Made by a program: the position numbers and the translations under genes. The notes below the pieces were generated by a model that was not told the DNA's origin, did no database searches, and saw nothing but the letters and a program-made list of their open reading frames with translations. From Cristatella mucedo (taxonomy: Eukaryota; Bryozoa; Phylactolaemata; Cristatellidae), in contig WPIO01000011.1 in assembly GCA_009760855.2 (NCBI GenBank), forward strand, positions 8,462,501 to 8,526,500: a stretch of DNA of 64,000 bases. Reading direction: 5' to 3'. Below, piece by piece: positions 53,601 to 59,600 of the stretch. Numbering within the stretch: the stretch's first letter is position 1; each line of letters opens with the position of its first letter.

Positions 53601-56600
53601 ATTTGCACTGAGACGAATGAGCATAAGCTTAATGAATATAAGATTTGAATCGACTGTAGTGTATCTGGGCCCTATTTTGCTCGCACTGACATACGATACA
53701 GTCGACACTCACGTCATGTCGTTGACCTGGTAGGCGGCCAGGAGCGGAGGCCAACTGAATTATCGGAATGTCAAAATGAGGGTATAGATAAAACTCGCGA
53801 TGAAACTCCAGTCTTATCTTAATTATGACAAGGACTCTGGATGACATACCGATGTGCCGCTGAGTAATCACTAGCATACTGACCGAATTGCCTTTCGAAC
53901 CCGGGTGGTCGTCTGGGACAGTCGTCGTACGAGGCGAGCCAACGTTTTTCCTATTATCCTTTCGACGTCGCTTGTTTCGCGCTTTGCCATTGCTTCAGAC
54001 AGAAATACTCAAGTCCAATACCATGTACCACAGCAGTGCCTTGTGTCTTGAGTTCTTCGGACATTATGTAAAGCTTAAGCAGCTTTTCATGAGCTCGTCC
54101 TTGACGTGCTTATGCGTGCTGACACTGTGCATGCTGCCACTAACCACATTTGCATGCTGACCCTGTGCATGTCACCCCTAACGATGTTACTCATTTTTTT
54201 GTTTATCAAGCATGATTTTACTCAACATTCAATTGCATTTCCCTTTGCAGCAAATGTAAAGTGCCTAGAGAGAGATTAAGTTCTCTGAGGGCGCTTTATC
54301 AAGTGCATTATAATCATTATTATTATAACTTCTGAATCCAAGTCCGGCCTCGGGCGATCGTGTGACGATTCTCTCTGAAATCTGCTATTGGCACATTAAA
54401 AGAAAGGCTGGTAGCAAGGAGCGGGGTGAGAGGTGGGCTATTTAATGTAGTCAGTGCACCTCTTGAGTGCGACGAAACAGTCTATCCCAAATTAACACAG
54501 AATCCTCAGTATACAAATTTTTGTTACCAGAACACATAATGAGACTTGAAGAACGAAGTCACATTAGGAAAATACTTTAAAACTCATTTCAATTTAAAGA
54601 TCGAGAAAAGTTTTATAAGTGCTCCCATAAATCTAAATATAGCGTTAGTACGTTATCATCTGCAGACAATTTTTCATACCGAGTTTTGAAATGCCTGGAT
54701 AGAGATTTATCTCTTAAAGAATATAACTCATCTGTATGGTGCTCAAAGAGAACTTAATTTATATTCAGGTGCCTTACATATTTCACGGGCTCAAGCCCAC
54801 AACCACAGCCAGCCCACGGTCGGGGTGAGCACCTTAACCACCGAGCTAAAGTCATCGCACAAAGACTTATTATTAAATTTTAGTGATGGATGATGCGCAA
54901 TAATTAAAGACGGGGTGCGTTGCAACTTTTGTCCTTGAAACTGTCACAACGTCTCTAGGCTATTAACCTTAGGAAGACTTCTTATTAGCCCCAGGAGCCT
55001 TTTGACGAAGAATGTTAAGTATTAACTGAGCATCTTTCAAAGGAAAAAGCAGAGCGCTTACCGTACAAGGGTCAAAAAGAAGAGTAAGACCAAGAGTGGC
55101 TCCGATCTTGGCTTTTCACATTGGAAACACTCTTAAATTGAAGCCGAAAATTATTTTGAGTTTGTATACCTTCTTAGCAAACTTGTGGTCACACTTTAAT
55201 TAAAGCATTTGCCGTTTTTCAGAGACCGACCTGAACTTCTTAATGAGAATGGCCCTCGAAAAGGTTTCAGAGCTTCCGTTTGCAAAGATTGTGGATGAAT
55301 GGAGGTGGAGCGTCTTTAGCGGAGTAACACCTCCAAGCGAATATAACAAGAAATGGTGGCAACTACGGTACGTCATCACTTCTCTCTCTCTTTTAACGAA
55401 GGAGTTTGCAGAACTTAGGCCTCTGCTGCTGGGAATCGACTCTCTAATTACCGGAAAATAATACGACGCGTTTCTTTCTCTTTAGCGCTATCCTTTAGCG
55501 CTTGCATCATTTATCATTTGCACCTTTCGTTGAGAATCTCCCGCAGACGTAGTGGAATATATGCGGAGGGTTCTTGCACTCTCTTGGCATTGTAAATCAC
55601 AGTTATCTGTTGATTTTTAAACAACTATATCAACCAACAAAATGGCTTACTGTTACATCATTTACGTTATGCTTAGCGCTTTGTGAATCAGGGTGACGGG
55701 CCAGTTCAGCCACATTTACTAATTAATTTCAATTTAAGAAATTCAAAATTCAAAGCGACCAGAAGCCATCTGCCGTGGAACTGAGGGCCTAAAAATAGTT
55801 TCGCCTCGAGCGGGACACGATCCCGCAAAAAAATAAAAAAAAATATTAGCTTATTTAACAGCCTGATTTTTATAGCGGCAGAAGAGCCTTGCGAATATCG
55901 CCACCGCTTACAGTAGGCAATGAACTACTGCCCAATGCAGGATTCGAACCCACGACCTCGGTCATGAGGAGCGAGCACCTTACTTCCTGGGCTATCGCGG
56001 CCCTTAACTCCAGGTTACCAGTGCCAGTGCTCTACCGATTAAGCTTGCGAGACAACTCTTCCAACGGCCTTCAGCACAGGACCAAAAAGCGTCGGCGTTA
56101 AATTGCTAGATCACGTGCTCGAGCCGCATCCTCGCGAACTGCACAAACGAATGCTTATATTTATAGATGCAAATTTCGGCGCCAGTTGCAACCATTACGC
56201 CAGCTGCGGTCGGCAACCATAGAGCGTCTACACTTGTACATGCTCAACGTTCACTTACCTGCACATGCATGGTGACTTGTAAGACTCAAATGCTTGGGGC
56301 CAAAGACTGAGTTCTGACGCTTTTAGTAGCGGGCTTTAAATCTCTTTCTGGTCGAACAGCCCACTAAAGCTTTGCTAATTACTTACAAGTGGGGAGAGGT
56401 ATACTTAGAGGCTAGTGCACTTGGCACGCTCGTTAAAAGCTAGCACTGTCAACACACGACGGCTTGCCGCCGTCGTGTATTGGCGATTGATTTCGTGCGA
56501 TGCAATCGAGCTTTCTTGGAAAGCTGCATTCGGGGTGATGGAAGTTATGTGGTGCACATCGCTGACATCTGCTTGAACTTGACTCCTTTGCAGGTGCAAG

Positions 56601-59600
56601 TATCAAGGCGTCTCACCGCCGATTCAGCGAACGGAACTAGACTTCGATCCAGCAGCCTTGTATCACATATCTGCGAACAATCCTTTTGTAAAGTAAGTGC
56701 CGCCGAAGCGTCCCAAAGCTATGTCGCTCGCGGTGCACTTTTGGGGGTCTGTTGGCAGTTTTGAGTCGATTAAATGTCAATTTAGCTGCAGAAAAGCTTT
56801 CGACTTTAATTAGCTGGAATGTTTAGCGGCGTCGAGGTATAGCGAAGGAGCATTGAGAATCCAATGAAGATTTCAGCCAAGTTTCTGTAAAAGTCACGCT
56901 GGTACTCGCGTAGGATCGCGGGATGTCGCTCCTGTCGTGGGCTTATTATATGTAGGACTTACGCTACCCACCAGCTGACGGTACGAAGTGCGAAACTCTG
57001 TATCTGCTTGTATTTACATTTTGGTTTCCTTTCGTAGGCCTTGCCAAAAGTATTTAGGGCTTATAGACGTCACTCACGGTGGAAGGGACGCGCTTTGCTT
57101 GCTGACGCTTGCTGATTTAGCCATGCTTAGAAGTCATCCTACGCAGTTCTCTCTTTCTCCCGTAAAAGGTTTTATGAACTACTCGACTGACGTGTTTGAA
57201 TTCTCTCGCGATGCATATAATGCAACTGTCGCAACTTGGCCCGCCCCGTCTTCTTGGCTTCTAACGTTAATCCTAACTAACTAGTTGATTACGATGGTCG
57301 TATATCGAATTAAGAGCCGCTACTTTTTTGTAAAATACTCAAAATTTATAGCGCTAATACTTTGGCAGAGAGTGCCAGTCTGACAGCCCGATATATGAGC
57401 CATTAACGTGCAAGCTGCTCTCACCTGCAGATGCTCACCTGCGGTACCGTCGGTAATCGTCCAGCTCTGTACAACAACTGGCCTATCCATCGTTTGTTGA
57501 AGGAAAGTCTTGTGAAAGCTCAAGGGTCAGTTTTCGCGAAAGCTATGATTCCGCTCTTTAATCAGACTATTTTATGTTCCTTTGTATAGAAGGAAAGGTC
57601 TCATGCTTACATATAAGTGGCTTTCATAAAAGTTGTTTGAGTAGATTTATTAATACTTTATATATGCTGGCACATTCTTGTACGCACAAACACGCATAAA
57701 TAATTTCAAAATACAGTGCGCGAAGGTCGTCGGCTGCGGCACTTCTTTAAGAAACTCACTTTAAGCCCAGCGATCGAGCTGGTATCTCTCGATATTCTCT
57801 GAGAGGCCCTAATACTTCGTCAAAAATCCTTAACGTAGCTCGGGATACCACCATTTTATATGAAATTCTTAGGACACGTTCTCGGGAAGAGTCCTTGTTT
57901 CGAAAAACTATAATGACGCAATCTGGCGTGGCGGACTAAGAGCTGTACGAATTTGCTTCAATTAGAACGCAAAACCATAGAATTTAGTTTCCCGAATCCA
58001 TGCCTTAATCGCTTAGATACCGAGAATACTTTATCTATCGCTTATACGCTTGGCTTAATGTAATGTAATGTATCTGAGTCTGTAACTCCACAAAGCCATT
58101 AAGGCTTAGAGCACTTCATGGCTCTAATGTTATTCTTCAATTTGCATCTTCGGTGCAACTTATCTGCAATATGCATATCCATGTGCCCGATCCAGATCTA
58201 TAAGTCGCCTGAGTAGATCGCATATAGGGCCAAGTGTGCGTGTAGTGAATGAGCGAGAGCAATTGCGCACGTGACGGTGGCGAGTGGACGACGAAGTGTC
58301 CTCTGCTGACTGTGTGACTGATGGCTCGATTGTCGATGTCCGACTTACTCGAGTCTTTTTTTCGAGTCTTATTTTGTAGCTACTTTATCAGTACAGTACT
58401 TCAGTTTCAAATCCACCGATCGCTGTGCAGAGCTGCTAACCACACCGGCCCCATTCACAGATGCGACATCTATGGATCGAAGGAAGCCGGCGACCTCCTA
58501 GCGTGAGTGGTTGGTTGTCAAGTACGCGATCTACGGCGGCGGCTGCTTCGCTAACGTCCTTGGACTACGTCCAAGGACGCTAGCGCAGCAGCCGCCGTAG
58601 ATTCGCGTAGATGCCAATGGCCGGTGAACGTAGTGCCTCTGCTCGTGGCTGCGCTGGCTAGTCCCGGAGGCCGACATCGTGACAAATACTGGCGAAGCCC
58701 TGAGCCTCGGAGTGCGGCTAGTGACTTTTTTCAGGCGCAGCACCAATGCGCGCAGGCACGCCAGCGGTAGAGTAGTGGCGCGGCACCGAAGAACGCCCAC
58801 AACTCAAGATAAAAGCCCAGTATCCGTATCGCTACAGCCGAGACAGAGGCGCCCAGAGCCCGTGGCGCCGCTGAGCCACCGACCGTAGAGGGCCTGCCTC
58901 GGGTGCAACTGCCGCTTGGCTCAACGCCGAGAGCTCATCAGCTGACTGCCAATTATATGACTTGGCCTTGTACATCGCCTAGCCATGGATTATGACACAA
59001 TCGGTCCCGGTCAGTATAATTCAGAAAACCACGAGTACCGCAATTTTTCAGCCACAATCTTACTGATCTAGCACACCACCATTTCATAGTGCCGCGCGTG
59101 AGCACTAAGGCAGCTGACCTTTCGTAGACCGCCGTTTTAGTTAATCTTTGCTTGTCAAACGTTTCGGGCCAAGACTTCCGAGTTGATTTAACGCGAGTGG
59201 GCTTCAAGACCAGAGAAGGTACAAGTCTAGCCTGAGATGGCAATCGAACGTCATTGAAAGCCGACTACAGCATACTGAAACGTTATCGTGATAAATAGGC
59301 CATATTATGACACTTGGTAGAGAAATATACCGCTGGCCTGTAACTTAAAAACCTTTTGTCAGTTGTTTTCAGTTTTACAGGTGATTCGAGTAAATTTTAA
59401 GACACTGTTTCAGAATCTGTAACTCCTTTTACATGCAATATATATAGCTTTTACCATCGTTTAATAATAAGACTATCAACATTATGTATAATTTAAAAAA
59501 ATCTTTAATTTATTAAAATGCTTTTAAACTGCCTCTTCCTCGAATTTCTGCTACGCTCAGTAGCTGGATTTCGGTGATTCGGGCTCCAACAGTAAATTCG

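What the first reader, a model, noticed from the sequence alone, without database searches (positions are those of the whole stretch)
55223..58502. ACE with an intact zinc site but altered substrate-carboxylate and chloride sites
Seen: aligned to human testis ACE as I remember it, zinc ligands and catalytic residues are kept (H410, E411, H414, E438, H541, Y551). However, Lys511 is L539, Tyr520 is F548, Arg522 is N550 and Arg186 is H210. Known: Lys511, Tyr520 and Gln281 hold the substrate C-terminal carboxylate; Arg522 with Tyr224 binds chloride 2; Arg186, Trp485 and Arg489 bind chloride 1. Here Q311, Y248, W513 and R517 remain. Inference: an active metallopeptidase whose C-terminal anchoring and chloride response have changed, perhaps with a different cleavage mode or substrate.
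Basis: partly seen in the sequence, partly recalled or inferred. Interest (0 to 1): 0.88.

Follow-up and report, generated by a model that had tools for sequence, protein, structure and literature searches.

The report
ACE paralog with ACE2-like substrate pocket
An animal genome carries a fast-evolving duplicate of the ACE peptidase that keeps the zinc-cutting machinery but has lost residues that grip the end of the substrate, in part the same way human ACE2 did, so it may cut different peptides or cut them differently.

Summary
Zinc and catalytic residues are intact; tACE Lys511, Tyr520 and Arg522 are Leu539, Phe548 and Asn550. Each is invariant in 80 of 80 bacterial M2 sequences examined, human ACE N and C domains, fly AnCE and three paralogs of this genome. 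No alternative exon 10-12 was found. The gene is sister to a canonical ACE about 13 kb downstream, with a branch almost three times as long and no stop codon.

Gln281 is kept, so ACE2's Arg273 is absent. The chloride-1 point (Arg186 to His) is ordinary: human N domain, the neighbour and 43 of 80 bacterial sequences have His.

Best reading: an active zinc peptidase with a rebuilt S1'/S2' pocket and reduced chloride-2 control, not an ordinary dipeptidyl carboxypeptidase. An ACE2-like carboxypeptidase using Arg312 is possible but unproven; loss of activity is not excluded. New variant of a known kind.

The parts
11372..11680 (+). exon 1: putative signal peptide and N-terminus; ATG at 11372
   Evidence: donor GTAGGG; start inferred from ORF
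28987..29151 (+). exon 2
   Evidence: homologous exon in C22b
33515..33602 (+). exon 3
35442..35585 (+). exon 4; holds H210 (tACE Arg186)
41274..41483 (+). exon 5; holds Y248 (tACE Tyr224)
41599..41693 (+). exon 6; holds Q311 (Gln281) and R312 (Thr282 to Arg)
45071..45237 (+). exon 7; CHPGAF: H380 (His353) kept, P381 (Ala354 to Pro, as ACE2 Pro346)
45581..45705 (+). exon 8; HEMGH zinc motif H410-E411-H414
47247..47348 (+). exon 9; third zinc ligand E438
55223..55367 (+). exon 10; E485 (Phe457 to Glu, S2' wall), W513, R517
56594..56692 (+). exon 11; L539 (Lys511), H541 (His513), F548 (Tyr520), first two bases (AA) of N550
58380..58502 (+). exon 12; third base (C) of N550 (Arg522), Y551 (Tyr523)
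62111..62471 (+). exon 13; C-terminus, hydrophobic tail (GPI- or membrane-anchor-like by eye), stop TAA
   Evidence: tail function inferred

Best explanation
The gene is a tandem duplicate of a canonical ACE that kept its zinc peptidase machinery and rebuilt the S1'/S2' (C-terminal) pocket. Shown: two of the three direct carboxylate contacts (Lys511, Tyr520) are gone, the S2' wall residue Phe457 is Glu, an Arg sits at 282, Ala354 is Pro and the chloride-2 ligand Arg522 is Asn. Inferred: it still hydrolyses peptides, with weak or different recognition of the free C-terminus, little chloride-2 activation, poor binding of classical ACE inhibitors, and a cleavage preference distinct from its neighbour's.
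For: Zn ligands, Glu384, His353, His513 and Tyr523 are kept, each 80 of 80 in bacteria. WIN (the window copy) changed 15 of 106 near-invariant sites, no more than active AnCE (17 of 109) or ACE2 (20 of 106); in the ligand-contact set 6 of 15 are changed against 9 of 90 elsewhere (p 0.007), where AnCE and C22b have 0 of 15. About 694 base differences from C22b (both lineages together) with no stop, where about 29 would be expected at random; pN 0.284 against pS 0.765. Sister to C22b, support 98/97, branch 0.71 against 0.25. Pocket contacts are from PMC12820606 (passages) and PMC7642307 (passages).
Against: No activity, expression or structure data. The contact-site p-value includes the three sites that prompted the test; without them it is 3 of 12 against 9 of 90, p 0.15. 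Some pocket change is lineage-wide: C163 and C603 also differ at 354 (Gly), 357 (Phe), 457 (Leu) and 527 (Thr) while keeping K511, Y520, R522. A long branch also fits relaxed constraint, and saturated pS prevents a branch test. Only one species was seen, so conservation of the L/F/N set is untested.
Confidence: 0.5

Rival explanations
1. Convergent ACE2-type carboxypeptidase (a special case of the best explanation): loss of Lys511 and Tyr520 with Pro354 reproduces much of the ACE2 pocket, and new Arg312 (position 282, next to ACE2's Arg273) holds the P1' carboxylate or blocks S2', so single residues are released.
For: L539, F548 and P381 are identical to human ACE2 Leu503, Phe512 and Pro346; 6 shared changed near-invariant sites among 15 and 20 in 106, p 0.035, of which 277, 509, 511 and 520 have the same residue. 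Arg at 282 occurs in 0 of 80 bacterial rows. ACE2 Phe274 (same column) lines S1' (PMC7642307 passages).
Against: Gln281 is kept and ACE2's Arg273 is absent; Arg312's side-chain direction is unknown; ACE2 keeps Arg514, WIN does not; N277D is weak evidence (human N domain also has Asp). Overlap p is modest and unadjusted.
Confidence: 0.18
2. Catalytically weak or dead scaffold: a duplicate under relaxed pocket constraint, now binding peptides or acting non-enzymatically, as proposed for Drosophila Ance-2, -4, -5 and C. elegans ACN-1.
For: Branch almost three times as long as its sister's; strictly conserved pocket residues lost, including ones not changed that way in ACE2 (F457E, R522N). Inactive M2 paralogs are known (PMC1325048 passages).
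Against: Those pseudoenzymes lack essential active-site residues (PMC1325048 passages); here all tested are intact. Global loss of near-invariant sites is no higher than in active AnCE or ACE2.
Confidence: 0.25
3. Endo- or amide-tolerant peptidase (another special case): without carboxylate anchors and with Glu at 457 the enzyme prefers C-terminally amidated or basic-ended peptides.
For: Lys511/Tyr520 lost and a carboxylate added to the S2' wall; S2' pocket formed by Tyr523, His383, Phe457, Phe527 (PMC12820606 passages).
Against: R312 may neutralise E485; purely inferred; the literature search on amidated substrates gave nothing I used.
Confidence: 0.12
4. Artefact: a wrong splice model, assembly error or pseudogene creates the altered residues.
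For: The exon model is from genomic DNA alone; no cDNA.
Against: All 12 introns GT..AG; candidate splice sites in the same phases are present in the paralogs where modelled; no alternative exon; at least five base changes over two exons; no stop.
Confidence: 0.03

Closest known systems
Human ACE2 (2ajf, 1r42)
   Same: Leu and Phe in place of Lys511/Tyr520, Pro in place of Ala354, Thr at 527 (Thr also in C163 and C603), zinc machinery intact
   Different: ACE2 has Arg273 at Gln281 and keeps Arg514 (Arg522); WIN keeps Gln, has Arg at 282, Asn at 522, Glu at 457; 38% identity, not sister in the tree
Human ACE C and N domains
   Same: M2 catalytic set; Gln281; His at 186 as in the N domain
   Different: Lys511, Tyr520, Arg522, Phe457, Ala354 changed; 44% and 41% identity
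Drosophila AnCE
   Same: single-domain M2 peptidase, catalytic set
   Different: AnCE keeps the three anchor residues and Arg522; 37% identity
Tandem neighbour C22b (G000:C22, about 8537720-8568725)
   Same: 56% identity over 534 columns (53%), same intron phases where modelled, hydrophobic C-terminus, His186, Gln281
   Different: keeps Lys511, Tyr520, Arg522, Ala354, Phe457; Phe at 224
Oyster CgACE and leech TtACE (literature)
   Same: invertebrate ACEs; [quoted passage not shown]
   Different: CgACE is an active, chloride-sensitive dipeptidyl carboxypeptidase (PMC3235092, abstract and passages); neither sequence was aligned here

Membership tests
Peptidase family M2 (ACE) | Pfam PF01401 match over the catalytic domain | tested here: met
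   704.6 bits, residues 63-637, profile 4-574 of 581
Peptidase family M2 (ACE) | HExxH plus downstream Glu zinc site and His513/Tyr523 | tested here: met
   H410, E411, H414, E438, H541, Y551
ACE-type dipeptidyl carboxypeptidase | Gln281, Lys511, Tyr520 carboxylate anchors | tested here: not met
   Q kept; K is L, Y is F; Q, K and Y 80 of 80 in bacteria
ACE-type dipeptidyl carboxypeptidase | release of C-terminal dipeptides, chloride activation | not testable with these tools
   needs recombinant enzyme
ACE2 | Arg at the Gln281 position (Arg273) with Leu503 and Phe512 | tested here: not met
   Leu and Phe present, Arg273 absent (Q311); an Arg is one residue on, at 312
ACE2 | descent from the ACE2 lineage | tested here: not met
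   sister to C22b 98/97 (22 rows, 14 of the 80 bacterial ones); the ACE2 branch is long, so its own place is unsure
Inactive M2 pseudoenzymes (Ance-2/4/5, ACN-1) | loss of essential zinc or catalytic residues | tested here: not met
   all tested are kept

The most novel reading that the evidence does not exclude
An ACE duplicate in an apparently invertebrate animal has independently evolved an ACE2-type monocarboxypeptidase: it lost the same two carboxylate anchors to the same residues, gained the same Pro in S1', and moved the anchoring arginine to position 282, one residue from ACE2's Arg273, while also losing chloride-2 control.
Probability: 0.17. Interest if true: 0.7.

Novelty: new variant of a known kind. 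Interest (0 to 1): 0.45.

Why it matters
ACE and ACE2 differ in how many residues they remove, and that difference has been explained by three residues. A natural paralog that carries two of the three ACE2 states but not the third, beside an unaltered neighbour, is a ready test of which residues set cleavage mode and chloride dependence, and of whether an ACE2-like pocket arose more than once.

Tried and rejected
Chloride-1 change as a special feature: rejected, His186 is common. ACE2 orthology: not supported by the tree or by identity. Alternative exon carrying Lys/Arg: none found by ungapped scan. dN/dS on the WIN branch: synonymous sites saturated. A search of the genome with the window's exon 10-12 peptide, to look for an allele, did not complete, so only the family search speaks to copies.

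Organism: not identified. The COX1 contig reads best with AGR as Ser and AAA as Lys (invertebrate mitochondrial code 5; the Lys call rests on one recalled motif), which argues against vertebrate, echinoderm and flatworm. PF00379 cuticle domains gave no match, a weak hint against arthropod, since that search's controls also rang nowhere. The codes are recalled.

First pass on the bacterial sequences picked a wrong reading frame in 9 of 80 rows; redone with frames chosen by blastp, 80 of 80 used. Tyr224 in the paralogs: one search's alignment and the spacing from Trp220 give Phe; one search's alignment gives Tyr (C22b) or His (C163, C603); I follow the spacing. Paper searches that gave nothing used.
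Full report
What is there. The window lies in a 572-Mb animal genome (G000:C22:8462501-8526500). tblastn with human and fly ACE finds ACE exons across about 11.6-62.3 kb of the + strand. Pfam names it Peptidase_M2 at 704.6 bits. WIN below means this window copy.

Residues. The reference sequences were recalled and checked against PDB chains. Further pocket changes it did not name: Ala354 to Pro, Thr282 to Arg, Phe457 to Glu, Val379 and Val380 to Met, Ser355 to Gly, Trp357 to Phe. 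Not all of this is private to the copy: C163 and C603 also have Phe at 357, Gly at 354, Leu at 457 and Thr at 527.

Are they unusual? A scan of bacterial genomes gave 500 relatives, of which the tool kept the best 80. In 80 of 80 the residues at 281, 511, 520, 522 and 457 are Q, K, Y, R and F; at 354 79 are Ala and one Ser; at 282 none is Arg; at 186 43 are His, 36 Arg, one Ser. These 80 are the closest to the query, so divergent M2 members are under-sampled.

Paralogs. A Pfam search of the whole genome finds M2 exons at four gene loci (36 matches; 39 of 39 candidates scored): this one, a tandem neighbour on C22 (called C22b) and two on contigs C163 and C603. They were fetched and modelled by looking for splice sites in the window gene's phases. 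Exon 1 was seen as a candidate in C22b and C163 but not modelled, exons 1 and 2 were not found in C603, and exon 10 of C163 and C603 uses a GC donor. From the end of the window gene to C22b's likely first exon is about 13 kb. All three keep K511, Y520, R522 and Q281. The codon for 522 is split by intron 11: AA|C here, AG|G in C22b, AG|A in the other two. The window copy is sister to C22b (98/97) with end branch 0.71 against 0.25 (tree of 22 rows, with 14 of the 80 bacterial ones).

Constraint. Window copy and C22b differ at about 694 bases over 593 codons, pS 0.765 (saturated) and pN 0.284, with no stop; 4.2% of single changes in C22b would make one, about 29 expected. Near-invariant sites were those with one residue in at least 97% of the 80 bacterial and other animal rows, the tested row, WIN and ACE2 left out. 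Of these 15 of 106 are changed here, 3 of 108 in C22b, 10 of 108 in C163 and in C603, 17 of 109 in AnCE, 3 of 106 in the human N domain, 2 of 108 in the C domain, 20 of 106 in ACE2; gaps, not counted as changes, number 1, 5, 4, 4, 0, 0, 0 and 1. In sites contacting ligand (list from the passages of PMC12820606 seen, plus zinc ligands and 522, which I added) 6 of 15 are changed here and 9 of 90 elsewhere (p 0.007), 6 of 15 and 14 of 90 in ACE2 (p 0.037), 0 of 15 in AnCE and C22b, 1 of 15 in the N domain, 3 of 16 in C163 (p 0.18). Leaving out 511, 520 and 522, which prompted the test, 3 of 12 remain (p 0.15). So the protein is under coding constraint and its pocket has changed; focusing on the pocket beyond the three named residues is suggestive only.

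ACE2. PMC7642307 (passages) states that Gln281, Lys511 and Tyr520 bind the C-terminal carboxylate in ACE, that ACE2 has Arg273, Leu503 and Phe512 instead, that this explains its carboxypeptidase action, that Arg273 blocks S2', and that Pro346 replaces Ala354 in S1'. The window protein has the Leu, the Phe and the Pro but keeps Gln. Its Arg is one place on, at 282, the column of ACE2 Phe274, which lines S1' in the inhibitor complex (same paper); in the ACE C domain quinaprilat's P2' ring lies about 4.3-5.0 A from the side chains of Val379, Val380 and Thr282 (PMC12820606, passages). That Arg312 replaces the lost cation is inference. Shared changed sites with ACE2: 6, from 15 and 20 among 106, p 0.035, unadjusted. 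Since the copy is sister to C22b, the likeness is best read as convergent.

Chloride. Cl2 is bound by Arg522 and Tyr224, Cl1 by Arg186, Trp485 and Arg489; the N domain lacks Cl1 and Cl1 has limited effect (PMC7642307, passages). R522Q, and R522K without ligand, lose the ion; R522Q keeps 87.7% of C-domain kcat/Km on angiotensin I, 27.5% on Z-FHL and 0.36% on HHL at 20 mM NaCl (PMC3894356, passages). Asn here should act like Gln: reduced chloride control and substrate-dependent activity. The three paralogs keep Arg522 but appear to have Phe at 224 (alignments differ), so chloride handling in this lineage may differ generally.

Novelty. M2 paralogs with an altered pocket are known (ACE2), as are ones with broken catalytic sites (Ance-2, -4, -5, ACN-1; PMC1325048, passages). 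PMC3354321 (passages) reports ACE2 orthologs in tunicate and amphioxus, none in Drosophila, and groups bacterial sequences with them; the 80 bacterial rows here carry the ACE-type anchors, not ACE2's. In nine answered library searches, seen as listings plus an abstract or passages of seven papers, I saw no invertebrate ACE with intact zinc site and the Leu/Phe/Asn set; most subscription literature is not held. Verdict: real, new variant of a known kind.

Noticed in passing
window 58529-58602: Inverted repeat with 29-nt arms 93% complementary and a 3-nt loop (arms 58537-58597), just downstream of the exon 12 donor.
   Followed up: partly
L011-L013, L015-L016, L017-L019 (paralogs): C22b, C163 and C603 have Phe at the chloride-2 ligand Tyr224 by spacing from Trp220 while keeping Arg522; the window copy is the reverse (one search's alignment differs).
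   Followed up: partly
window 33515-33602 and paralogs: All four genes keep Cys152 but lack its usual partner Cys158 (the pairing is recalled).
   Followed up: no
G000:C163 and G000:C603: Two ACE genes 91% identical with dS 0.26 and a GC donor at exon 10, apparently a recent duplicate.
   Followed up: partly
window 9426, 30625 (-), 38117, 51645: Similar ORF fragments containing WEGSKQR or WEGSNQR, apparently an interspersed repeat.
   Followed up: no
L103, L104 (G000:C688): The 21-kb contig with COX1 carries repeated and inverted segments and reads by the invertebrate mitochondrial code.
   Followed up: no
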